Part shown: in pieces, positions 34,993 to 47,943 of the stretch
Numbering within the stretch: the first letter of the stretch is position 1
Layout: each line of letters begins with the position of its first letter
From: Candidatus Jettenia sp.
GTDB lineage: Bacteria > Planctomycetota > Brocadiia > Brocadiales > Brocadiaceae
NCBI GenBank assembly: GCA_021650895.1
Contig: CP091278.1
Location: forward strand, 3,315,659 to 3,379,658
Reading direction: 5' to 3'
DNA: 64,000 bases
Notes under the pieces: model-generated
What the model saw: only the letters and a program-made list of their open reading frames with translations
Database searches by the model: none
What the model was told of the DNA's origin: nothing
Translations under genes and position numbers: made by a program

Positions 34993-36232
34993 GGCGAGCC
35001 TCCCCGTCAAATAATTTTTTACTTCCCTTCTACAGAAGAAGAGGGAATAAATTAGGTTAGGTTTTAAAAGACAAAACCCAACGACTGTTCTTTTTTACCC
35101 ACCCCGATATTCTCTGGATGGGGCTAAGAGGTGGGTTTCCTCCCAATTTACCCACCCCTCAATCCCCTCCCGAGAGGGGACTTTTATACTCCCCTCTTGA
35201 GAGGGGGTTGGGGGTGTGTTCCTTCCCCTCCTGGGAGGGGTTAGGGGTGGGTTCATTCCCCTGGAGAGACGCAACATCTTGCGTCTCTACAATTGGGGTA
35301 GGGGTGTGTTAACGGTATCATGAAAAACTTTGAATTTCCTAAACGTTCAATTAGGCTGCCTTTGGCCGCGCCTCATGAAGAAAAACGGATGTGTAGGGCA
35401 AGGCTTTAGCCTTGCCAAGCAACCCTGAAGGGTTGCCCTACAAAATTGAAATCCATATACATAAATTTACCCATAAAACGGAACTTCGATTCTAGCGGTT
35501 GACATGCCTGTGCGTAAAAGCTCATACGGATAAGCATGAAGGAGCGAAATAAACTGCACATTACAGTTTATAGCTACTTATATTTCCTTTATCATTTTAC
35601 TTATCGTTCCTTGAATTTCAAGGTAAATTATAGCATCCCATAGATGAAACTGACCGTACCAGTGCGAATCCAGAACACAAGCTATAAGCTTCGTTTCCAG
35701 CATAAGCTATAGTGATCAACGATGGAAACCAGACAGCATATAGCGGAGACGAAGTTTTGTAAATCACATGTTCTCCGGTATCGTGATCAATATTTACCAT
35801 GGAAACACTCGCGGAGTCGATGTAGGGCGAGGCTTTAGCCTTGCCTCATCCTGTCTGAACATGTAAGGGAGTAGCAACCCTAAAGGGTTACCCTACGGAA
35901 TTGAAATCTCTCAACTTTAAACGCAGAGATAAAGGAACGGTAAGGATAGGCAATCCCCCTTAATCTTCCAAAAAAGCTTATCCTTATCCGTACTTTAAAA
36001 CACCACGAAGAACACAAAATACACGAAGAATAAGAGAATTCAGCATCTCATTTTTATCCGATCAACACACTCAGTACAGACGTAAAATCTTGCATCTCTA
36101 GGTCCTTCTTTCTTCGTGCTCTTCGTGATTTACCTTGCTCTACCTTCGCTTTCCACCCCAACTTGCAGAAAGGATACGTTGCGAAAGGGGGGATCAGGGG
36201 AGATTACTCAAGCGGTAAAAAGAAAAAAGCGT
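34993..36232. repeat. Long repeat-filled intergenic region
   Basis: 1.24 kb without a gene. From left: flank TTAGGTTAGGTTTTAAAAGAC with inverted copy (~35052-35083); composite element (35098-35252); GAGACGCAACATCTTGCGTCTC hairpin (~35266-35287); palindrome 35393-35441 (GTAGGGCAAGGC...GTTGCCCTAC); a direct/inverted AAGCTATA/AGCTATAG cluster around 35690-35715; palindrome 35822-35896; and CGAAAGGGGGGATCAGGGG at ~36182, an intergenic relative of the in-gene palindromes. ORFs here are repeat artefacts. Confidence 0.75.
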
Positions 36233-39200
36233 CTAATTACTTTTTAACAATTGAATGGTAATACCCTCTTCTTTATTTTTTTCAAGGGGTATTTTAACCT
36301 CACGTATCGATTTTCTGTAACCATCTTTCTCAGCAATAATACGATAAGTATCTGCATCTACATACTCAAAGGTAAAACATCCATTTGCATCGGACTCCAC
36401 GATCTCGGCGTACCCTTCCCCTTTCAGACTTAACTTTACTCCTTCAATTGCATCACCGCTTTCACTGAAAACATGTCCATGGATATGCAACGGTGGATAC
36501 CCTGCATGGCCGGAATGTTTAATCCCATTAGTATCACCATGACTATCTGGCGCCTGCACAGATACATCCTGAGTTACAGAAGCATCATATTCGCTTATAA
36601 TTCCAACATCGTTCTCATTCGATTTTATCGACGACGCAAGGGAAGCTTTCCAGGCACATTTAAGGTTACCGTTCGTTATATCATAATAGCTGATATACAC
36701 ACCATTTGATGGGTTAAGTGCTATAGAGGTATACCTGCCTGCATTCCCACTGCTGTCAATAGTCGTTATTACCCATGAGCCGGAAACATTGGTAGCATAT
36801 TTGAGATCACTATTATCCACATCGTAATAACAGATATGAGCATTCTTAGATGTATCAACTGCAATAGAGGTGTCTATGCCAACGTTTCCATTAAAGTCCA
36901 CGCGCTTTTTTAGCCATTTGCCAGAGACGTTGGTGGCATACACCAGATCACCGTCATCCCTATTATAATAGCTGATGTACACCTTGCCTGGCGTATCAAC
37001 CGCTATAGAATTATACTTGCCTAAATCTCCGTAAGTACCTACCGTATTTTTTTTCCACAGACCAGAGGCATTTGTGGCATATTTTAGATCGTGGTTAGTT
37101 ACATCATAATAGCTAATATGTACCTTATTTGAGATATCAATCGCAATGGAAGTATCCATACCCACAACTCCATTACTATCCACAGTTGTTGTTACCCATA
37201 AGCCAGAAACATTGGTAGCATATTTAAGATCTTTGTTAGTCCGATCATAATAACTTATGTGCACTTTATCCGATGTGTCAACTGCCAGAGAGGTATACAA
37301 CCCTGTATCTTCACCCTCATCAACATTCTTTGTTATCCAGAAGCCTGAAGCATTCGTAGCATACTTAAGTATTTTATGGGTCCAATTATAATAACTGATA
37401 TGTACCTTACCCTGTTTATCAACTGCTATGGAAGTATACCAGCCTACATCTCCTTTATGATCAACCGTCTTCCTTACCCATAAGCCAGAGGCATTTGTGG
37501 CATACATAAGATTACCGTTCGTTCCATCATAATAGCTTATATGCATCTTACCTGACATATCTACTGCTATGGAGCTATACATACCCACATATCTTCCGTT
37601 ATCCACCTTCTCGGCAACATATTTTCCTTTATCTGCCTCCAATCCAATAAACGAATGAGAAGCGTCGGTAGCATATTTAAGATCATCATTCGTAGTGTCA
37701 TAATAGCTGATGTGTATTTTACCTGATGGCTCAACTGCCAGAGAAGTGTACAGGCCGACATCTCCTTCACGATCAATCTCCTTTACCAGGAAATCAGAAA
37801 TATTCTTTTTTGTCCACAAACCAGAAGCGTTGGTAGCATATTTAAGGTCCCCGTTATCCTTATCATAATAGCTAATATATATCTTGCCCAATGCATCAAT
37901 TCCGATAGAAGTATACAGACCTGTATTTTGGCCGCTACTATCTACATCTGTTTTTTCCCATGATCCGGAGGTATTGGTAACATATTTGAGGTTGCCATAC
38001 GTCACATCATAATAACTCATATGTACTTCGCCTGATATGCCAACGGCTATTGAGGTATACTGTCCCACATCTCCACTGTTGTCCACATTTTCTATCATCC
38101 ATGAACCTGAAGCGTTTGTGGCATATTTAAGATCGCCATTCGTATCATCATAATAACTGATATGCACCTTATTGAACGTATCGACAGCAAGAGAGGTATA
38201 CTGTCCCACATCTCCAGTACCATCTATAGGATAGGTTATCCACGAACCAGAGGCATTCGTGGCATACTTCAGATCGCTATTATCTAAATCATAATAGCTT
38301 ACATGTGCATTCCCAAAGGTATCGATAGCTATTGAAGTATACAATCCTACATCCCCGCTATTGTCCACAGTTGCAATCTTCCATGAACCAGAGGCGTTGG
38401 TGGCATATTTAATCGTATGATTAATCCTGTCACGGTAGCTAATATGCATCTTGCCTGATGCATCGATTGCCAGGGAAGCATAGTACCCCACACCCGGCGA
38501 TATGTCTACAGTCTCATAATGCCAGCTCGTACCATTGTAGTGTACATAATAGAGACGGTCACCGCCGTAGGCAATATGGGGATGGTTATCGGCATCAAGG
38601 GCAATTGCCCTTGAGGAAAAATAGGAAAACCATTTTGGAGCTTCCACCGCTATTGTCTTCCAATTGGAAACCGTTGTAAATTTATCTTCTTCTCCATGTG
38701 TTATACCTGCGCTATTCTGCGCCACAATCCTGTAATAGTACGTCGTTTCATCCGTTAATCCATTTACTCCAATACTTACGGGTGTATCACCCGACCCATC
38801 TACAATCTGCGTTGCTGATGTGCTGCCATACAAAGCGCTGACCGTTCCGTATTCAAACCATGCTGTTGTTTCTAGCCAGTTAGCATTTACCGTTCCATGC
38901 AATGTAGCGATATTTGATGTTACGTTCGATGGCAACCCGGTTACTACCGTTGGAGCTTTACCCTCATTATACGTTATACTTATTATATCCGTTCCTGTAT
39001 TACCGGCCCCATCCGTAGCTTTTACTGTTATTTTATTATCACCTTTTGATAAAGTTATATCAGAAATAGCCCAACTGGTTGTCCCGCTTGCCGTACCGCT
39101 ATTACCATTACTATTACTCCACACGATATTGCTTATCCCGCTTATATCATCTGAGGCAGCGCCACCAAGGTCTATCATAGCATTATTTGTTGTATAGGTA

Positions 39201-42200
39201 TCAACAGATGTAGGGCTGGTAATGGTTACTACTGGCGCAGTGATATCCGGGGATGGTTCGGTCGTAAAGCTCCAGAGATATTTTGAAGCCATTGCATTGT
39301 CTGCCAAGTCCTTTACTTCTGTCGTAATCTCCGCTGTATACGTTGTAGAATAATTCAGGCTCGCAGATGGAACAAGCCTTGCAATCTTGTTCGCACTATC
39401 GTAATCTACTTCGCCCGCCACACCATTTACCGTAAACGTTGATATATGTATCGTGCTGTCATCCATTGCCTCGTTAAATGTTGCCGTAATAACACTATTG
39501 ATTCCTATATTTGTCGCATTATTTGAAGGACTTGTTCCCGTTATTGCGGGTACTGTGGTATCCAGAATTATCGTATCGCTGAATGCTCCAGACCAGTTAC
39601 CCGCACTGTCTTTGTACCTCACGGACACCGTCTTCGTCCCGTCTCCTGCCGCCAGTTCCCATGAATCTTTCGTTGTTGTATAGGTATCCTCCGCCGTCCA
39701 TGTTGTACCATCATTGCTGAACTGCATCCCTACAACACTTTCCGCATCACTTACTGAAAGGCTCAGGCTCACGGTCGTACTGTTGGTATACTCTGCCTCA
39801 TTATTGATAACAATTGAACCTGACGGTAACTCTGAGTCTATAGTATACATAACAGTCTTCACCGTCTCCGTATTCCCGGCTTCATCCACTCCAAAGAACT
39901 TCAAGGTTGTCGTGCTGGCAATGTTTATTGGTGTTGTAAATACCGGTGATGATACTGTCGGTTCTGTACCATCCACCGTATAGTAAATAGTTGTAGGTTC
40001 ATTCGATGTTAACGTTACATCCTGTGTACCGTTATACAGCCCGCCAACTGGCGTGGCTGTCGTCTCCGGTGCTGTTCTATCCATCGTTACCGGTCCACTA
40101 CTGTACCCGTAGATGATTGTTGTGCCATCCTCTATCTTTCCATATACATAGTATGGCCCGTCTGCAAGGCTCTCTGTATTCCAATTATAACTATCTACGG
40201 TATCATCCTCATGTATTCCGGTAGTAATCAGGGTACCATCGTTACCCGTATTGTCTGTGTCATAGTACAAACTTATTGTAGCATTGCTGTCAGGATCTCC
40301 ATCTGTCCACTCAAGAGTAAATACCGTTAGCCTTGTTGCAGGATCAGACGCGCCTGGTTTCGTAATATATATCGATGGTGGATCGTTCACTCCGTTGTTA
40401 TTTACAAAGAAAGAATTTGCTGTCATCCAGTCGCCATATACACCATGTTCATCCTGCACCCTTGCCCTCCAATAATACCGGGTATTATCCACTAATCCTT
40501 CTGATACCGTCCAACTCGTTCCCTGGCCTGTAGCTTCTTTTACAAGGGAACCAGGATCAAGGTTACTATCACTGTATACCTCGTAATCATACGTCAGGAT
40601 ATCATTGTCTATATCTGTTGCGGCATTTACCTGGAGACTTGGTGTCAGGCTTGTTACCTCGCTGTTATTGGCAGGATTGTTCAGTGTTGGTACTCCCGGT
40701 GGATCATTCACCGTGTTCACAAAGAATGTCCCTGTTGCCATCCATGACCCTTCCGCTACATTATCACTTGCCTTCACCCTCCAGAAGTATGTCGTATTGT
40801 CTTGCAAATTACTTGCAACTGTCCATGATGTTGTACCTGCACCTTCAGATACCTGCCCCGATGTCTGCTTGTCAGCGTTATCAAAGGTATTTACCTTATC
40901 TGCCTCAAAAATATAACTTAGGCTGTCCCCATCCAGATCAGTAGCATTATTTACTACCAAAGCTGGCATAAGTGTTGCCACCTCACTCCCGTTTGCCGGT
41001 GAGGCCAAAACTGGCGTTGTCGGTACATCGTTAGCCATATTTACCATAAACGACCCATTCACCCATCCACCGGCTGCGCCATGCTCATCCCTTGCCTTTG
41101 CCCTCCAGTAGTATGTCCTATTATCATCAAGTGTAACATCTACTGTCCAGGAGGTTGTGCCTGCATCCTGGGCAACACCGGTAATCCCTGCTACAATATT
41201 CGCAAAGAGATTATCCGTTGCACCATCAAACTCGTACGTCAAGGCATCATTATCCACATCGGTAGTATTTGTTACCGATAGTACCGGTGTCTGGCTTGAT
41301 ACTTGCATACCATCTGCCGGTTCACTTATCCCTGGTACACCAGGATTATCATTTGACGTATTTACAAAGAACGACATGGTATCCATATACAGACTGTTTA
41401 GATTCCCATCGTTAGCTAGCGCCTTCCAGTAGTACACCGTGTTATCCGTTAGGTCTACCGGAACATCCCACGATGCCGATGTCTCATTGCCCTCCAATCC
41501 TTCCACCCAAGCCGTCATGCTTCCAAAGTTGCTTGTATTGCTCACCTCGATCCTGTATGTCACCTCATCCCCTTCCGCATCTGTAGAGGCATTGATTTCT
41601 AGCGTAGGTTTAAGTACTACGACCTCTGATCCATTCAATGGTTCTTTTCCTGTTGGTACTGTCGGCGCCGTATTGGTTGCTCTGGTAAATGATGCACTAT
41701 TTGCCCCGGAATCTATTGTATTACCGGCAAGATCGGTAACACCGCTTACCGTTATCGTATACGTCACATTCACCGCATGTTGGGTTGTCGTGAGCCGATA
41801 GGTGTTTCCGCCGATATTTGTAACTCCACTAATCACCAGCCCATTGTTAGCCGTATAGTTCGAAAGTATTTCTCCACTATTTATCGCCTCGCTGTACGTT
41901 ACATCCACATGTGTGTAATTCACTTCCTCTGCATCCAGTGTTGGTGATGTAGTATCAAGGATAATAGAATCACTTATGGTATTGGATATATTACCCACTG
42001 CATCCTTAAACCATATATATACGGTTTTTTCACCATCACCAGAACTCAATTCATAAGAAATATCTTTAACAAAATTGGTATCAGAAGGAACGACGACCCA
42101 ATCAGGATTAGGCGGTATAGTGAAATCTTCAGAATGATAATAACCTACTACTCCGACATTATCTGTAGCAGAAACATTTAAGGTAACATCTCTAGTATTT

Positions 42201-43375
42201 GTATATTCAGCACCTTCATTTATACTTGTTGAGCCATTTGGAATTTCTTCATCATCAAAATTTGCTGTAATACTTTTTGGTCTATCCATGCTCAAAGTGG
42301 CTGGATTATTACTTCCACTTAAATCCCCACTCCAATTCTTAAAGGTATAATTGTCTTTAGGTGCTGCTGTTAATTGTACTTGTGCACCAGCATTGTACCA
42401 TGGACCTAAAGGATTAAGCTCAATGGTTCCACTTCCACTTGGATTTACAGATGTATCAAGTAAATACTGTGGTGTAAAACTCGCCGTATATGTTGTATCA
42501 GAGCTAGGCACTGTAATCTGATGAGTTTGTTCCCCTCCATCACTCCATGAGGAATAATTATAGCGAGTCTTTTGATCTTGAGAAGGCTGTGGTGTTGGAG
42601 TACCAATCGTATGCTGCGAACCAGGAGTCCAGCTAAATGTATGGGGTGGAGCATAAGATGTACCATCCACTGTGATATACTGAACAATGGGGTTAGTTGT
42701 AACTGTAATCTGAACAGAACCACCTCCAAAATTTGCTGTAACACTTTTTGGTCCGTTCATGTTCAAGGTAGTTGGATTATTACTCCCGCTTAAATCGCCA
42801 CTCCAATTCTTAAAAGTATAATTATCTTTAGGTCTTGCTGTTAATTGTACTGATACACCAGCGTTGTACCATGGCCCTGAAGGGTTAAGCTCAATGCTTC
42901 CGCTTCCACTAGAATTTACAGATGTATCAAGTAAATACTGTGTTGTAAAACTAGCTGTATATGTTGTATCAGAGCTAGGCACTGTAATCGAATGAGTTTG
43001 TCCCCATCCATCACTCCACGAGGAATAATTATATCGGATCTTTTGGTCTTGGGAAGGCTGAGGCGTTGGGGTACTAATCTTATGCTGTGAACCAGGATTC
43101 CAACTAAACGTCTTTGGTGAATTATAGGTTACATCATCCACATTTATTTGAAGACCAACTGGAGTGGTAGTAATCGTAATTTGGATATTTACATTGTTAT
43201 TTGTAGATGAATAGTATTTAGGGTTCCAAGGATCCTGAGTTCCCACCTTATAGTCTTCTACCTTCACGCCATCTATGACAAGCCCTTGTAATTCCTCTAC
43301 AGTTGAAGCACTACTTTTATTATAGTACACCTGAAAATGAACATGCGTACCAGTACTATTTCCAGTACTTCCCAT
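36233..43375 (-). CDS. Giant secreted multidomain protein, 3' part of a split gene
   Basis: A 2380-residue reading frame continuing the 43394-45865 gene after one in-frame TAA. Residues ~1-25 are the second half of an M23 peptidase (GSTGNSTGTHVHFQ, the H-x-H zinc pair). Then come two InlB/Bacterial-repeat modules (~75-385, PKDNYTFKNWSGDLSG), an Ig-like stretch, four ~105-residue FN3-like repeats (~560-1000, NDVPTTPVLASPANGSEV type), a chitobiase-C-like module (~1100-1175, TTIYYTVDGTEPT), a SbsA-type Ig (~1280-1375), FN3 (~1470-1560), fourteen propeller-type repeats (~1580-2245, IAVDTSGKVHISYYD.TNGDLKYAT) and a carboxypeptidase-regulatory-like C-terminus (~2288-2378). It has no signal peptide of its own. 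Re-initiation at ATG 43375 is conceivable because the stop creates TAAGGAG upstream. Otherwise it is silent. Confidence 0.85.
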   Translation of the reverse strand: MGSTGNSTGTHVHFQVYYNKSSASTVEELQGLVIDGVKVEDYKVGTQDPWNPKYYSSTNNNVNIQITITTTPVGLQINVDDVTYNSPKTFSWNPGSQHKISTPTPQPSQDQKIRYNYSSWSDGWGQTHSITVPSSDTTYTASFTTQYLLDTSVNSSGSGSIELNPSGPWYNAGVSVQLTARPKDNYTFKNWSGDLSGSNNPTTLNMNGPKSVTANFGGGSVQITVTTNPIVQYITVDGTSYAPPHTFSWTPGSQHTIGTPTPQPSQDQKTRYNYSSWSDGGEQTHQITVPSSDTTYTASFTPQYLLDTSVNPSGSGTIELNPLGPWYNAGAQVQLTAAPKDNYTFKNWSGDLSGSNNPATLSMDRPKSITANFDDEEIPNGSTSINEGAEYTNTRDVTLNVSATDNVGVVGYYHSEDFTIPPNPDWVVVPSDTNFVKDISYELSSGDGEKTVYIWFKDAVGNISNTISDSIILDTTSPTLDAEEVNYTHVDVTYSEAINSGEILSNYTANNGLVISGVTNIGGNTYRLTTTQHAVNVTYTITVSGVTDLAGNTIDSGANSASFTRATNTAPTVPTGKEPLNGSEVVVLKPTLEINASTDAEGDEVTYRIEVSNTSNFGSMTAWVEGLEGNETSASWDVPVDLTDNTVYYWKALANDGNLNSLYMDTMSFFVNTSNDNPGVPGISEPADGMQVSSQTPVLSVTNTTDVDNDALTYEFDGATDNLFANIVAGITGVAQDAGTTSWTVDVTLDDNRTYYWRAKARDEHGAAGGWVNGSFMVNMANDVPTTPVLASPANGSEVATLMPALVVNNATDLDGDSLSYIFEADKVNTFDNADKQTSGQVSEGAGTTSWTVASNLQDNTTYFWRVKASDNVAEGSWMATGTFFVNTVNDPPGVPTLNNPANNSEVTSLTPSLQVNAATDIDNDILTYDYEVYSDSNLDPGSLVKEATGQGTSWTVSEGLVDNTRYYWRARVQDEHGVYGDWMTANSFFVNNNGVNDPPSIYITKPGASDPATRLTVFTLEWTDGDPDSNATISLYYDTDNTGNDGTLITTGIHEDDTVDSYNWNTESLADGPYYVYGKIEDGTTIIYGYSSGPVTMDRTAPETTATPVGGLYNGTQDVTLTSNEPTTIYYTVDGTEPTVSSPVFTTPINIASTTTLKFFGVDEAGNTETVKTVMYTIDSELPSGSIVINNEAEYTNSTTVSLSLSVSDAESVVGMQFSNDGTTWTAEDTYTTTKDSWELAAGDGTKTVSVRYKDSAGNWSGAFSDTIILDTTVPAITGTSPSNNATNIGINSVITATFNEAMDDSTIHISTFTVNGVAGEVDYDSANKIARLVPSASLNYSTTYTAEITTEVKDLADNAMASKYLWSFTTEPSPDITAPVVTITSPTSVDTYTTNNAMIDLGGAASDDISGISNIVWSNSNGNSGTASGTTSWAISDITLSKGDNKITVKATDGAGNTGTDIISITYNEGKAPTVVTGLPSNVTSNIATLHGTVNANWLETTAWFEYGTVSALYGSTSATQIVDGSGDTPVSIGVNGLTDETTYYYRIVAQNSAGITHGEEDKFTTVSNWKTIAVEAPKWFSYFSSRAIALDADNHPHIAYGGDRLYYVHYNGTSWHYETVDISPGVGYYASLAIDASGKMHISYRDRINHTIKYATNASGSWKIATVDNSGDVGLYTSIAIDTFGNAHVSYYDLDNSDLKYATNASGSWITYPIDGTGDVGQYTSLAVDTFNKVHISYYDDTNGDLKYATNASGSWMIENVDNSGDVGQYTSIAVGISGEVHMSYYDVTYGNLKYVTNTSGSWEKTDVDSSGQNTGLYTSIGIDALGKIYISYYDKDNGDLKYATNASGLWTKKNISDFLVKEIDREGDVGLYTSLAVEPSGKIHISYYDTTNDDLKYATDASHSFIGLEADKGKYVAEKVDNGRYVGMYSSIAVDMSGKMHISYYDGTNGNLMYATNASGLWVRKTVDHKGDVGWYTSIAVDKQGKVHISYYNWTHKILKYATNASGFWITKNVDEGEDTGLYTSLAVDTSDKVHISYYDRTNKDLKYATNVSGLWVTTTVDSNGVVGMDTSIAIDISNKVHISYYDVTNHDLKYATNASGLWKKNTVGTYGDLGKYNSIAVDTPGKVYISYYNRDDGDLVYATNVSGKWLKKRVDFNGNVGIDTSIAVDTSKNAHICYYDVDNSDLKYATNVSGSWVITTIDSSGNAGRYTSIALNPSNGVYISYYDITNGNLKCAWKASLASSIKSNENDVGIISEYDASVTQDVSVQAPDSHGDTNGIKHSGHAGYPPLHIHGHVFSESGDAIEGVKLSLKGEGYAEIVESDANGCFTFEYVDADTYRIIAEKDGYRKSIREVKIPLEKNKEEGITIQLLKSN

Positions 43376-43393
43376 GATGCCTATAATATCTCC

Positions 43394-45865
43394 TTATTTT
43401 ATCTTTTGCCCGGCCGAAACCAGAGGGGTCTCTTTGAGATGTCCGTATCTGGTTGCATATCCATTACCATCATATGGCTCGTCATGATCGATAAAAACAG
43501 TGTAACCAAAACCTCCCGATGACCAACCCGCCTCAATCACTTGTCCATCCCCCGCTGCAAGAATAGAGACATCAGTTAATTTTCCATCCTCTTTTGTATA
43601 ATCATCAAAATCAAGCGAATAATATCCATTTCCTGTATGATATATATCAGTCCCACCCCAAAAATCCTTACCGCCTGCCTCCACTGTAAGAAGCCATGAC
43701 TTATTGCCAGACAATGGAAGTTTTAAATTTGGTGTTGGACTTGGCGTTAAAGGTACATCCTTTACGCTACACTGGTTGCAAGGTGGGGTGTAGTCCTGCG
43801 AAGAAGGCTGATATCCCGATTTGCTCACTTCTAATGTATTTGTCTGGCAAGGCACAGAATTAAAAATATATTTTCCACTACCGTCAGTCGTCGTGCTGTG
43901 TGAACCCCACTTCACACTTGCGCCAGAAATCGCACTGCCTGTATTTGCATTGGTCACTGTACTGCCAAATGAGGCAGATTGATATTGTACGGTAATTGTT
44001 TTAGTATATTCATTATCCGATTCATTACTTTCCTGAACAGCCCCGGTTGCATCAGCAATGATCTTAATATAATGTGTTCCCTCATTTAAAGTTCCTAAAG
44101 AATAATCTGTTGCATAAGCATAAACATTAGCATTTAAGCTCGAAATAGAAAAAGAAATACGTTCTGTCCCATCTACATAAAGCTTAAAATAAATAGTATT
44201 AGTAATCGCACTTATACCGTTATTAATTACCGCCCAATCAATATATAGTGTATCCGTTGTGTAAAGAGGACTATCGTCAATATTCGTCCCTGTTGTCTTA
44301 GAAACCACAATTTTATCCGACCAACCAGATGGTTGATATGGTGTAAGGTTAGCACTGCTGGAAGACGCTAAATCATAATTTGGGTAGTAATGCTTCAGAA
44401 TTTCTTGCCAGTTTTTAGTTCCATAAGAATGCGGTACTCCAGCCTTTAAGCCCGACGCCCATCGCATTGAGCCTACCTGACACATTCCTCGTCCATGTCC
44501 ATTATTGGGTTCATCACAGCAAACAGGATCGTAAATACAAGTACCCGTATAACAATTTCCACATCCTGCATTGTTTTGCTGGGCAGAATACTCAAACTTG
44601 GGAACATTACTCGTATTTTTTATCACAAGTACCTGATTGGCAGTCTCATTAACAGCGTTGCTTACAAAGTAAGTTTCTTTCGATGGATCGAACACCTGAC
44701 AACAATCCGTATCACAAATGTCAAAACCGTGTGATTTATAAACAGTAGTATTATTTACAAAATATATTCCATAACTACGAACGGCAACCGCACCGGCCTT
44801 GAATGCATCCTTCCAACGTGCTTCATGAAGTGTTGGAAAAGACCACTCATTTGGAAGCACATATTTGCAATATTGTTCTATACTACCTACCCATGTAGTT
44901 GGGCAAGGTATGCAACCAGATGAACAGGGTCTACAATCATCGTACTTGGGACATCCACGACCCACACGAATTTGTGTAGGGAAAATAGTTTCTTGTATTG
45001 CTTCATGTTGTATTTCTAATAGTAATTCTTCTGTATCTGCATAGGACTTTTGATAATGCTCAACATTATCCTTAGGTAAACCTTCTAGTTCTGAATCAAG
45101 ATAAGGAACATTGCAATGTTTTTGTCTTTTTTCGTCAACGATTTTCTTATCTCCACCTGGTAAAAGACGGATTTTATAAATAATAGCGTCATTTGGTATC
45201 AATGCTACATTCGCACGAACTACGGTGCTATAACCAACTTTCTCGAAGATAATATCCATTGTCGAAGTAAATTCTTCAGATTGGGTTTTATAACTTGGGG
45301 AATAAGGGATAAGGAGTTCAAAAAACCCTCGTTCATTTGTTAAATCTATAACGTCACCATCCAATGATCGAACAACTACGTCAGGCAAGGGTTGTCCGCT
45401 ATCCTCGTCTATCACATACCCAATTATGACTGCTGTATTTTGACTAAGTAGAGACTTAACAAACTCAGGCTTCATTTCTTGTGGAGGCTCAACTGGGTCT
45501 AAGAAAATTTCTATCCGCAAAGGTTCATCTCTAGCAGTTACTTTAGTTTGTATTACATGATATCCTTTGGACTTGACCAGAAGATCATACGTGCCATGCT
45601 CAGGAGATAAACCCGCTCGACCATTTTTACCAACACTCACTTTTTGTTTCTGAAAGTTATTCACAATAGTCACTTCGTCAGGCTGAATTGCATAACCCTT
45701 TGCACTGTCAAAAAATCGCATATTTAGTAGTTCCTTTGTATTCCCCATATCTTGCATGGTTAGATTAAACTCATTCTCTTGTGCAATGCTATTGGGCAAG
45801 TAAAAAAAAATAGCAAAAAAACAGATTAAAAACAGGTATTGTTTTTTATACTGTCGAGTAAACAT
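43394..45865 (-). CDS. SpoIID/CARDB/M23 secreted protein, 5' part of a split gene
   Basis: 823 residues. Signal peptide at residues ~3-28 (KKQYLFLICFFAIFFYLPN), carboxypeptidase-regulatory-like repeats (~50-230), a SpoIID/LytB-type domain (~290-500, RVGRGCPKYDDCRPC, YVLPNEWSFPTLHEARW, KAGAVAVRSYGIYF), a CARDB domain (~520-630, LNEGTHYIKIIADATG), another regulatory-like domain, and the first half of an M23 peptidase (~720-823, YHTGNGYYSLDFDD with the zinc His and Asp; FIDHDEPYDGNGYATRYGH). Reading then stops at TAA after VSAGQKIK, in the same frame as the following GDIIGIMGSTGN. Together they form one ~3.2-kresidue wall- or glycan-acting protein. Start: AAGGAG lies seven bases before ATG 45865; an in-frame GTG three bases earlier is less well spaced. 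Confidence 0.85.
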   Translation of the reverse strand: MFTRQYKKQYLFLICFFAIFFYLPNSIAQENEFNLTMQDMGNTKELLNMRFFDSAKGYAIQPDEVTIVNNFQKQKVSVGKNGRAGLSPEHGTYDLLVKSKGYHVIQTKVTARDEPLRIEIFLDPVEPPQEMKPEFVKSLLSQNTAVIIGYVIDEDSGQPLPDVVVRSLDGDVIDLTNERGFFELLIPYSPSYKTQSEEFTSTMDIIFEKVGYSTVVRANVALIPNDAIIYKIRLLPGGDKKIVDEKRQKHCNVPYLDSELEGLPKDNVEHYQKSYADTEELLLEIQHEAIQETIFPTQIRVGRGCPKYDDCRPCSSGCIPCPTTWVGSIEQYCKYVLPNEWSFPTLHEARWKDAFKAGAVAVRSYGIYFVNNTTVYKSHGFDICDTDCCQVFDPSKETYFVSNAVNETANQVLVIKNTSNVPKFEYSAQQNNAGCGNCYTGTCIYDPVCCDEPNNGHGRGMCQVGSMRWASGLKAGVPHSYGTKNWQEILKHYYPNYDLASSSSANLTPYQPSGWSDKIVVSKTTGTNIDDSPLYTTDTLYIDWAVINNGISAITNTIYFKLYVDGTERISFSISSLNANVYAYATDYSLGTLNEGTHYIKIIADATGAVQESNESDNEYTKTITVQYQSASFGSTVTNANTGSAISGASVKWGSHSTTTDGSGKYIFNSVPCQTNTLEVSKSGYQPSSQDYTPPCNQCSVKDVPLTPSPTPNLKLPLSGNKSWLLTVEAGGKDFWGGTDIYHTGNGYYSLDFDDYTKEDGKLTDVSILAAGDGQVIEAGWSSGGFGYTVFIDHDEPYDGNGYATRYGHLKETPLVSAGQKIK

Positions 45866-46422
45866 CACAAATCTCCTTTAGTAAAGAATATGTGTAAAAA
45901 TTAAAAACGCCTTTCCTCTGATTTCTCGGTACTAATTAAAGGGGCAAATCTTTTTGAATAATTTGACCACTACTTTTCCTTACAAAAGGTAATTTAATTT
46001 TTCTTTTAATGCTTCTAAACAATTGCATGTCTTTTATCATTTTTCTTTCTCTCAACAACGTTATGCACCAATCTTTCAAAACAGCCATAACGGATACTTA
46101 TTTAATCACTTTCACGATTATTGACTTTCTCACATTTCCCGTTCTGAACGTAATTCTTGATATTCCCATTTTGTCTTTTAAGATTATCATTGATAAGAAA
46201 TGAATATTCTTTTTGTCTATAGTTGTAAATACTTTACTGTTTGTTATGCTATAATCTCTCGTAATCTCTTTAAAAATTAAATAATTTCAAAAAATCATTT
46301 TATTTAAATTTACAAATAGCTAAAATTATTTTGCGGTAATTTAAGGAAGAAAAAATAAAAAGGATTAAAATAAATAGTTAAATCAAAATCGTTACAAAAG
46401 ATTGAAATATCTTATTTCCTTT
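45866..46422. other. AT-rich upstream region of the giant gene
   Basis: 557 bases, strongly AT-rich, no credible ORF. It contains the promoter region of the 43394-45865 gene, but I found no consensus -35/-10 pair and no riboswitch-like motif. The ORF 46009-46203 on the plus strand is low-complexity. Confidence 0.5.
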
Positions 46423-46908
46423 TCATATTTTCTTTTTCACCATTATTTTAATCTTTTTCTCTTCTCCTGCTTTCATCACTATCTTTCTTGTTACCTTCCT
46501 ATAGCCACTTTTCGTTACGACAATTGTATAGGTATCTTCCCTTAAATCAGCAAATTCGTAATACCCGATATCATTAGACGATATAGTTTTTGAGATATCA
46601 GTCTTTTCACCATGAAGCTTTAGAGTTGCCAATTTAACCGGTTTACTTTCGGCGTTTAAGACATATCCATAAATCTTACCCCTCTTAACCGATGCAATTG
46701 CAAATTGGCCGAATTTTGTAATTCCGGAAAACGTAACCGTATCCGGGGTAGCACTTACAGCAGATGAGAGTAATGTCCAGTTATTATCACTGTTACAATC
46801 GTGAATAAATAACTTGAGATTATCGGGAGTTGATAAGTCCTTTGGGGTTATGAAGCCGGAGTTACAAGCTAAACAGGCTGTATTCCCCGTCCAGAAACAA
46901 AAAAAGCC
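46423..46908 (-). pseudogene. Headless 3' fragment of a secreted regulatory-domain protein
   Basis: An open frame with no start codon. From 46908 it reads CFWTGNTACLACNSGFITPK, then FIHDCNSDNNWTLLSSAVSA, VTFSGITKFGQFAIASV, and ends with a carboxypeptidase-regulatory-like domain (KIYGYVLNAESKPVKLATLK, GYYEFADLREDTYTIVVTKSG, ...KKIKIMVKKKI). The annotated-style start at 46632 is only an internal TTG. The C-terminal module is paralogous to the end of the 36233-43375 protein (same YTIV..KSGYRK / YRII.EKDGYRK pattern). The frame enters directly from the terminator of the riboswitch at 46899-47043, so the 5' body of the gene appears deleted. Confidence 0.7.
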
Positions 46909-46952
46909 TTACTGCAAAGATATTTGTTAAAAACATCTTCGGCAGTAAGGCT
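46899..46952 (-). terminator. Terminator overlapping the c-di-GMP aptamer (expression platform)
   Basis: Read leftward, AGCCTTACTGC (46942-46952) pairs with GCAGTAAGGCT (46905-46915), with extra pairing AAGATGTTT/AAATATCTT inside, followed directly by seven T. The 5' arm is the same segment that would close the aptamer, so folding is mutually exclusive: ligand-bound RNA should read through, i.e. an ON switch. Confidence 0.75.
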
Positions 46953-47043
46953 ATCTTTCTGATATTTCTTATCTGGAGATGACTTGAGCTGAGATCCTAC
47001 ACTTTGCGCCCCCTGATCACTCAGGGTTTACCTTTATCGTGGT
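46937..47043 (-). ncRNA. Candidate c-di-GMP-I (GEMM) riboswitch aptamer
   Basis: Read leftward: AAAGGTAAACC, a stem CCCTGA-GTGA-TCAGGG (47011-47026) capped by a GNRA tetraloop, then GGGCGCAAAGTG (about 47000-47010) and later GATAGCCTTACTGCCG (~46939-46954). This order is that of the GEMM-I consensus (GGCAAACC, GNRA-capped stem, GGGACGCAAAGC, ..AGCC..GCCG), as in Vc2. The aptamer is followed by an overlapping terminator and preceded by a promoter. Its downstream gene is now only a fragment, 46423-46908. In Geobacter-type bacteria GEMM often controls large secreted or cytochrome genes, which fits. Identified by eye; a covariance-model search would decide. Confidence 0.75.
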
Positions 47044-47943
47044 ACTTTTACCGCAAAATTATTTTTACCACTAAATCATTTATTGAATTGTATGTCAAGG
47101 GAAAAACTAATTATTTTGAACAGCTCTCTTTTACTTCTTGTTTAATAAAATTTTTTTATCTTCTTGAGAAATAGGTATGTTGGTTTGATTATCTCTATTT
47201 GCCGGATAAGATGGGCATACGTAATTACTCAAGATAAGGTGCAAACCTGACCTGAGAGCTATCCAAAAAGACTATATTTTAAGGGTCATTGAGAATAAGC
47301 CAAAGCCAGGAGCAATCAAAGGAGAAGTAATCCTCCTTGTCTCCTTTAGAAACTTATCCTTACCTACAAGTTGGGTAGGGAGTGAAGGGAAAAGCGCGGT
47401 AAACCAAGAGGAACATGAAGGCCTGGGGATGCAAAATTTTGTATCTGTACTGAGCATGTTGAACGGATAAAAAGCAGAGAGAAAAAAACATGAAAAACCG
47501 TAATCATTGAGTTTTCAGAAAGAACTATCAGGCAATACAAGCATTATAAGAGAAGCGAAGCAGGTGATGATTCACATACACCCTTAATCCTCTATCAAAG
47601 GGTTAAGGAGTGCGTTCAGGAATCGACATGATTCCCCATTATGGGTTCAATTTGTACCTTGAACCCCTATCCTTTACATGGAGTTGATAGCTCATATTGT
47701 TCTCATAGTCTTAGCGCCAGGGAAATATTCCAAATTGAGGGTTCAGGTTATAAACCTGAACCCGCTTGAGAGTATATCCTCATTGCTCCCGGCAAGGCTA
47801 AAGCCTCGCCCTACATCGACCCCGTTTTTTCATGAGGAGAGACCGTAAAATTTTATGTCTCTCCTGCCAAAGGTAGTCTCATGTATAATTCATGTAACTA
47901 CCGAGTGAGAAAACAATGACCAGGAGTATTTCTGTGTAGTTGT
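46953..47943. other. Intergenic region beyond the riboswitch
   Basis: About 1 kb; its left end holds the aptamer and promoter. Further right, 47100-47720 shows no credible gene. At 47721-47765 is the repeat GGAAATATTCC...GGTTCAGGTTATAAACCTGAACC, also at 48771-48816. At 47790-47815 is a half unit GGCAAGGCTAAAGCC...CCCTAC. Short ORFs are not supported. Confidence 0.5.
47070..47098 (-). promoter_or_regulatory. Promoter driving the riboswitch
   Basis: On the minus strand TTGACA (47093-47098), 17-bp spacer, TTTAGT (47070-47075). The start should be near 47063, about 20 bases before the aptamer. Confidence 0.65.

What the first reader, a model, noticed from the sequence alone, without database searches (positions are those of the whole stretch)
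46899..47098. Orphaned c-di-GMP-I riboswitch with promoter and overlapping terminator, feeding a headless gene
On the minus strand a good promoter (TTGACA-17-TTTAGT) is followed within ~20 bases by GGTAAACC, a GNRA-capped CCCTGA/TCAGGG stem, GGGCGCAAAG and TAGCC..TGCCG, the ordered core of the GEMM/c-di-GMP-I aptamer. Its 3' segment AGCCTTACTGC is also the 5' arm of a strong terminator with seven T. The two folds exclude each other, so c-di-GMP would switch transcription ON. The gene downstream (46423-46908) is a C-terminal fragment with no start, so the switch now controls nothing obvious. It probably once governed a giant secreted protein like its neighbour.
Basis: partly seen in the sequence, partly recalled or inferred. 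Interest (0 to 1): 0.82.

Follow-up and report, generated by a model that had tools for sequence, protein, structure and literature searches.

The report
c-di-GMP ON riboswitch before disrupted gene
This is a genuine but ordinary RNA switch that should turn on transcription when the bacterial signal c-di-GMP is high; it belongs to a large family of such switches in anammox bacteria, and the big surface-protein gene behind it has been broken, replaced or lost in three related genomes.

Summary
Window 46937-47041 (-) is a c-di-GMP-I (GEMM-I) aptamer: RF01051 59.8 bits (cut-off 35), RF03167 59.7 (cut-off 59). At three ligand-contact positions it carries G-A-C, the canonical c-di-GMP set (recalled), not the G-G-C of the RF03167 consensus. 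Its 3' strand is also the terminator's 5' arm, so the folds exclude each other, as in the published pilM-type ON-switch. The same unit recurs in 11 of 24 aptamers of this genome (one by eye) and in other genera. The window is from a Candidatus Jettenia-type anammox bacterium.
'Once governed a giant secreted protein' is supported: in sister genome G002 the same switch, identical over 148 columns, lies 62 bp before a giant-protein gene (apparently split by an IS) whose last 816 residues match the window's giant neighbour at 89%. 'Controls nothing obvious' is neither shown nor excluded: the giant gene lies about 1 kb downstream on the same strand, with one in-frame TAA; no terminator is predicted between, but the scan also misses the switch's own. 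The headless ORF looks like a remnant wedged in between. A new member of a known kind, in an expanded regulon.

The parts
47070..47098 (-). sigma-70-like promoter TTGACA-17-TTTAGT with TG before the second hexamer
   Evidence: sequence match only, hexamers identical in G000, G001 and G002
46937..47041 (-). c-di-GMP-I (GEMM-I) aptamer, ligand-contact nucleotides G20-A47-C92 (Vc2 numbering, recalled)
   Evidence: RF03167 59.7 bits; RF01051 59.8 bits
46899..46952 (-). intrinsic terminator; 5' arm 46952-46942 is the aptamer P3 3' strand; 3' arm 46915-46905; seven T at 46905-46899
46423..46908 (-). headless 161-codon ORF with a CarboxypepD_reg domain; probably the C-terminal remnant of another large secreted protein
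43394..45868 (-). N-terminal part of the giant protein gene (hydrophobic signal-like start, SpoIID, CARDB, CarboxypepD_reg, first part of M23), ends at an in-frame TAA 43396-43394
36233..43375 (-). rest of the same reading frame: end of M23 (by alignment to G013), InlB-type and Ig-like repeats, C-terminal CarboxypepD_reg; last 816 aa 89% identical to the giant protein behind the same switch in G002

Best explanation
A promoter-riboswitch-terminator cassette. RNA polymerase starts a little upstream of 47041 and makes a class I c-di-GMP aptamer. Without ligand, the last aptamer strand (AGCCUUACUGC) pairs with GCAGUAAGGCU and terminates transcription. With c-di-GMP bound, that strand is held in P3 and transcription reads through: an ON switch. 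Its ancestral target is the giant secreted repeat protein gene downstream. In this genome a remnant of another large protein gene sits between the cassette and that gene, and the gene has an in-frame TAA, so the output is probably reduced or truncated. Shown: sequence, family match, overlapping folds, conservation, synteny. Inferred: ligand identity, ON direction, readthrough to the giant gene. The confidence given is for the switch and its mechanism; for present-day control of the giant gene I would say 0.45.
For: Two Rfam models above cut-off; G-A-C ligand positions in 23 of 24 own aptamers, the split R24 reading G-A with the third not found; exclusive folds; the same aptamer-tail terminator in 10 of 24 own copies plus R24 by eye, and an AGCCTT-type tail in a deep hairpin in 20 of 49 relatives' loci, chosen as best-scoring hits; the G002 switch lies 62 bp from a giant-gene start; 0 of 143 vs 29 of 727 substitutions to G002; 11 GGDEF matches in the genome, one of them partial, so the ligand is probably made; among the first genes behind other switches are surface and secretion genes.
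Against: No binding or transcription data. The promoter score is barely above shuffles. G000 and G002 share no DNA or blastp match over the N-terminal part of the giant gene, so control of the present gene rests on position. A 1-kb leader without translation may be lost to Rho. The tool that found no terminator in between also missed the switch's own. Covariation of the terminator stem is weak: 5 of 21 pairs have a two-sided change and 16 of 500 shuffles reach that; 43 of 500 reach the percentage paired.
Confidence: 0.8

Rival explanations
1. A true orphan: the switch still works as RNA but reads only into the headless fragment, and the giant gene has its own promoter or is dead. This competes only with the target part of the best explanation. 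(Raised from 0.40 in my draft after the recount.)
For: Headless ORF directly after the terminator; in-frame TAA in the giant gene; in G001 the switch survives although the giant gene is deleted, with fewer changes in its core than in its flanks (4 of 143 vs 18 of 268, p 0.11).
Against: No minus-strand promoter or terminator found between 46423 and 45868 (an insensitive scan); in G002 the switch directly precedes the giant gene.
Confidence: 0.45
2. The switch senses another cyclic dinucleotide (3',3'-cGAMP, or the ligand of the RF03167 GGC variant).
For: The family kept by Rfam's clan competition is c-di-GMP-I-GGC.
Against: G (not A) at the position that marks cGAMP switches (recalled rule), and A (not G) where the RF03167 consensus has G.
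Confidence: 0.06
3. The leader makes a stand-alone small RNA (the terminated transcript) that is the useful product. (Raised from 0.05 in my draft.)
For: Kept in G001 without the giant gene, core slightly less changed than flanks (not significant).
Against: The overlapping-fold design recurs in front of genes at other loci of this genome and in relatives.
Confidence: 0.07

Closest known systems
c-di-GMP-I (GEMM-I) riboswitch, Rfam RF01051
   Same: Full-length match above cut-off, canonical ligand nucleotides, P1/P2/P3 layout, GNRA tetraloop
   Different: Short P1 in the model alignment; extra length in the P3 loop, longer still in other copies of this genome
pilM ON-switch of Geobacter metallireducens (cGAMP; PMC9262584: abstract and part 1 of 2 of the introduction read)
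   Same: Aptamer and terminator share a strand and exclude each other, so ligand allows readthrough
   Different: That one senses cGAMP and controls a pilus operon; this one has the c-di-GMP pocket and precedes giant-protein DNA
Riboswitch-controlled collagen adhesins of the Bacillus cereus group (CbpA, PMC7423583; Cap, PMC4933901; abstract openings in listings only)
   Same: c-di-GMP riboswitch in front of a surface adhesin
   Different: Different phylum and different proteins
c-di-GMP-I-GGC, Rfam RF03167
   Same: Scores 0.7 bits above cut-off
   Different: Lacks the G at the position equivalent to Vc2 47 in that family's consensus

Membership tests
c-di-GMP-I riboswitch (RF01051) | Covariance match above curated score | tested here: met
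   59.8 bits vs 35
c-di-GMP-I riboswitch (RF01051) | G20, A47, C92 ligand contacts (numbering recalled) | tested here: met
   G-A-C at RF03167 model positions 10, 37, 75 and in the script
c-di-GMP-I riboswitch (RF01051) | GNRA tetraloop on P2 | tested here: met
   CCCTGA-GTGA-TCAGGG
c-di-GMP-I riboswitch (RF01051) | Binds c-di-GMP | not testable with these tools
   needs in-line probing
c-di-GMP-I-GGC (RF03167) | Score above cut-off | tested here: met
   59.7 vs 59
c-di-GMP-I-GGC (RF03167) | G at the position equivalent to Vc2 47 (my reading of the name and of the consensus; the source paper was not held) | tested here: not met
   A in the window and in 24 of 24 own copies
pilM-type transcriptional ON-switch | Aptamer strand shared with the terminator 5' arm | tested here: met
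   15 of 21 terminator pairs use the aptamer tail
pilM-type transcriptional ON-switch | Ligand raises readthrough | not testable with these tools
   needs single-round transcription

The most novel reading that the evidence does not exclude
In anammox bacteria the c-di-GMP-I switch has become a portable promoter-switch-terminator cassette, 20 to 57 copies per genome in several species, built in two geometries (aptamer-overlapping terminators, and distal terminators whose 5' arm repeats the aptamer's last strand). One signal would then turn one set of surface and secreted products on and possibly another off. At loci like this one the cassette stays while the giant surface protein behind it is swapped, broken or lost, giving c-di-GMP-gated surface variation.
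Probability: 0.25. Interest if true: 0.6.

Novelty: new member of a known kind. Interest (0 to 1): 0.36.

Why it matters
Anammox bacteria live as granules and biofilms used in wastewater treatment (general knowledge). In the titles and abstract openings listed (5 of 5 papers shown; 20 of 65; 20 of 116; 15 of 398) I saw no paper on c-di-GMP riboswitches in them; most matches were not shown and most subscription papers are not held. Dozens of copies per genome, in front of pilus genes, proteases, a glycosyltransferase, giant repeat proteins and a RiPP-like operon, make c-di-GMP a testable control layer for attachment. The window's locus also offers a three-genome comparison of what happens to a riboswitch when its gene is replaced or lost.

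Tried and rejected
GGC variant or cGAMP ligand: rejected on key nucleotides. Terminal inverted repeats of a mobile riboswitch element: an 18-base motif lies before the aptamer and, inverted, after the fragment. With 2 mismatches it also lies directly before R22 and R23, but no such inverted pair hugs those aptamers, so mobility is not supported; left unexplained. Orphan switches as a common class: R05 and R21 looked orphaned in the list (cut at 90 aa), but R05 is followed by four small Cys-rich peptides and a radical SAM gene and R21 by a 61-aa secreted-type peptide, so this was dropped. Loss of constraint in G001: my first count (9 of 151 vs 7 of 85) took in gap columns and bases beyond the T-tract; the recount gives 4 of 143 vs 18 of 268, and the claim is withdrawn. 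Covariation proof of the terminator: weak. Those 24 rows are 24 of the 29 segments; R16, R23, L105, L168 and L185 were left out; all were chosen for having the tail, so the 90% paired figure is circular. Shuffle control: 3.1% of 1200 shuffles reach 14 tail pairs, the lowest of the 24 observed. Phylum survey: one search scored at most 14 candidates per genome, so 14 means saturated; searches scored at most 88 and 150, so copy numbers are lower bounds.

Full report
Check of the observation. The Rfam scan of the whole window lists one match over its cut-off (one overlapping match of the same clan left out): RF03167 c-di-GMP-I-GGC at 46937-47041 (-), 59.7 bits, cut-off 59. RF01051 scores 59.8 bits against a cut-off of 35. 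In the printed alignment the RF03167 consensus has G at model position 37, whereas the window has A; position 10 is G and 75 is C. By the structure-based rule that I recall for Vc2 (positions 20, 47, 92), G-A-C is the ordinary c-di-GMP pocket. 23 of 24 aptamers of this genome read G-A-C; the 24th, R24, is split and reads G-A with the third position not found. I therefore file the element under c-di-GMP-I proper and not under the GGC variant.

Mechanism. The P3 3' strand AGCCTTACTGC is the 5' arm of a terminator ending in a run of T. Folding the tail and terminator gives -26.9 kcal/mol with 15 of 21 pairs inside the aptamer tail. The whole leader prefers the terminator (-43.8) over the best fold that keeps the aptamer pairs (-20.0). 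In the minimum-energy folds of partial transcripts the terminator's inner hairpin appears at 125 bases and the stem into the aptamer tail from 130. The unconstrained fold of the aptamer alone is not the Rfam fold; tertiary contacts and ligand are outside the energy model. This is the arrangement that PMC9262584 (abstract and part 1 of 2 of the introduction read) describes for the pilM ON-switch: aptamer and terminator mutually exclusive, so ligand allows transcription. The ON direction here is inferred from geometry; nothing was measured.

Generality. The genome (3.82 Mb, one contig) gives 24 aptamer matches with either model, 23 of them over the RF01051 cut-off. By expression platform: 10 (R05, R07, R15, R16, R18-R23) have the aptamer-overlapping terminator; 7 (R08-R13, R17) have a separate terminator with its T-run 63-79 bases after the aptamer; 6 (R01-R04, R06, R14) show neither clearly, although R03, R04 and R06 have 9 aptamer-tail pairs in long or weak folds. 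R24 has the overlapping type by eye. Of 49 loci from relatives, which are the best-scoring hits and not a random draw, the script called 28 overlapping, 10 distal and 11 none. Of the 28, 20 have an AGCCTT-type tail with folds of -15.9 or lower, in 12 genomes and two families of the order; the other 8 (L097, L098, L110, L111, L115, L166, L167, L179) have another tail and folds from -3.7 to -39.7, and I do not count them. Of 39 genomes searched, the own one included, 31 have RF03167 matches at E 0.001 and 28 over the cut-off. Counts reach 57 (G020), 44 (G022) and 35 (G013), and with RF01051 56, 45 and 35, all lower bounds. G020 fits Candidatus Brocadia sinica by size and contig number (4.07 Mb, 3 contigs; PMC4400429, abstract opening in the listing); that name is my inference.

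Organism. L152, fetched by the window's UvrD-like protein, is Candidatus Jettenia ecosi J2 contig SULG01000110.1, 11,700 bases, 91% identical in its best segment. It has the same length as G001 contig 110, and G001 is of the window's genus. The window is therefore from a Candidatus Jettenia-type anammox bacterium.

The locus in sister genomes. G002 matches window 46894-47770 at 96%, and the match stops at the end of the terminator. There the matched leader is followed after 62 bp by a 259-codon ORF with a hydrophobic start, then a DDE transposase gene on the other strand (Pfam), then a 3218-codon ORF. The last 816 residues of that ORF are 89% identical to the C-terminus of the window's 2380-codon ORF. 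So in G002 the switch fronts a giant secreted-type protein gene, apparently split by an IS. In G001 the switch is present (94%), but window positions 35710 and 46891 lie only about 850 bases apart and the giant gene is gone. In the window the 824-codon and 2380-codon ORFs are one reading frame with an in-frame TAA at 43396-43394, inside an M23 peptidase domain. The relative in G013 has this domain uninterrupted in one 1420-codon ORF, 82% and 88% identical on the two sides, also downstream of a c-di-GMP-I match on the same strand. Whether the TAA is real or an assembly error I cannot tell.

The headless ORF. 46908-46423 (161 codons) has a CarboxypepD_reg domain at its end and no usable start. 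At E 1e-6 it has matches in 20 of 39 genomes, the own one included, at 26-44% identity outside its own place, in open frames of 109 to 1577 codons; where in those frames they lie was not examined. In the two giant proteins examined this domain is the last one, which is why I read the ORF as a C-terminal remnant. G001 and G002 have no close copy (best E 1.2e-13 and 2.8e-13), and none lies at their copies of the locus. After the ORF comes a stretch with a motif resembling the one that directly follows the terminator in G002 (75.7% over 37 bases, E 0.047: weak). The simplest reading is that DNA carrying the tail of another large gene now lies between the cassette and the giant gene.

Is the switch still in use? 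Between G000 and G002 the core (46899-47041) has 0 substitutions in 143 columns, the flanks 29 in 727 (Fisher p 0.009); against the upstream part alone it is 21 in 645 (p 0.021). Between G000 and G001, which has lost the giant gene, the core has 4 in 143 and the flanks 18 in 268 (p 0.11). The core is thus protected in the first comparison and may or may not be in the second, so this does not decide whether the giant gene is what keeps it. My first count for G001 was misleading and is withdrawn. No minus-strand terminator or promoter is predicted between 46423 and 45868, but the same scan misses the switch's own terminator and promoter. The giant gene has a plausible ribosome-binding site, AAGGAG, before its ATG.

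Ligand and regulon. The genome has 11 GGDEF matches, one partial and lying behind switch R06. Among the first genes behind other switches are a type IV leader peptidase and a secretin (R08), PilM (R09), a family 2 glycosyltransferase (R10), a protein with a pilin-type methylation motif and DUF1559 (R11), an aminotransferase (R12), a TonB plug protein (R13), a matrixin (R15), a CBM48/alpha-amylase protein (R16), a subtilase as second ORF (R17), a short-chain dehydrogenase (R18), a PKD-repeat giant (R23), a beta-helix protein (R04) and a response regulator-methyltransferase (R06). Only 17 of the listed ORFs were searched; the 1631-aa ORF behind R22 has no Pfam match.

Literature. Searches for c-di-GMP riboswitches with anammox, Planctomycetes and the genus names showed no paper on the subject among the listed titles (lists capped). 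The library lacks most subscription papers, and the PNAS paper on variant riboswitches was not held. Tandem c-di-GMP-I sets are known (347 doublets, 12 triplets; PMC9481103, passages).

Verdict. A real, canonical c-di-GMP-I switch of ON geometry: a new member of a known kind. The added value is the three-genome history of its target and the size of the regulon.

Noticed in passing
G000:C1:40189-40309(+) and L051:2716-3927: Switch R05 precedes four Cys-rich 70-80 aa peptides with a related leader (LKLISLxLKDSL or close to it) and a radical SAM protein: a RiPP-like operon under a c-di-GMP ON-type switch (of two peptides searched one hits TIGR04117 at 23.6 bits, below its cut-off of 50).
   Followed up: partly
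G000:C1 R08-R13 and R17: In seven copies the terminator is separate and its 5' arm resembles the aptamer's last strand (for example AGCCCTACTACCG / AGCCTTACTACCG in R09); the geometry may mean an OFF switch, in front of pilus, PilM, pseudopilin-type and subtilase genes. Polarity not resolved.
   Followed up: partly
G000:C1:1124282-1124357(-), downstream to about 1123981 (L068): Switch R24 has a 192-bp insertion with 15-base terminal inverted repeats (CTAGTACACTGTCAA) in the P3 loop, leaving both halves of the aptamer and the terminator in place.
   Followed up: partly
P3 loops of R09-R12 and R15-R19, R21-R23: P3 loops carry repeated, hairpin-like stretches (TAGAGACGCAT...ATGCGTCTCT; GTGGACAGTGTTCGTGAACAGTGTCAG... 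and variants), as if P3 were a tolerated landing site for repeats.
   Followed up: no
window 46322-46339 and 47048-47065: 18-base inverted repeat (94%) flanking switch plus fragment; a version with 2 mismatches directly precedes the R22 and R23 aptamers. Function unknown.
   Followed up: partly
G000:C1:3092635-3093065 and 3087659-3087746: Tandem aptamers R01 and R04, starts 342 bp apart, before a beta-helix protein gene, with another near-copy (R03) before a near-identical gene 5 kb away.
   Followed up: no
G000:C1:3494704-3494852(-): Switch R21 precedes a 61-aa secreted-type Cys-rich peptide ORF; the region is 95% identical in G001 and G002.
   Followed up: partly
G000:C1:674055-678961: R22 and R23 are near-identical divergent switches about 4.6 kb apart, each before a giant ORF (1631 and 1732 aa).
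   Followed up: no
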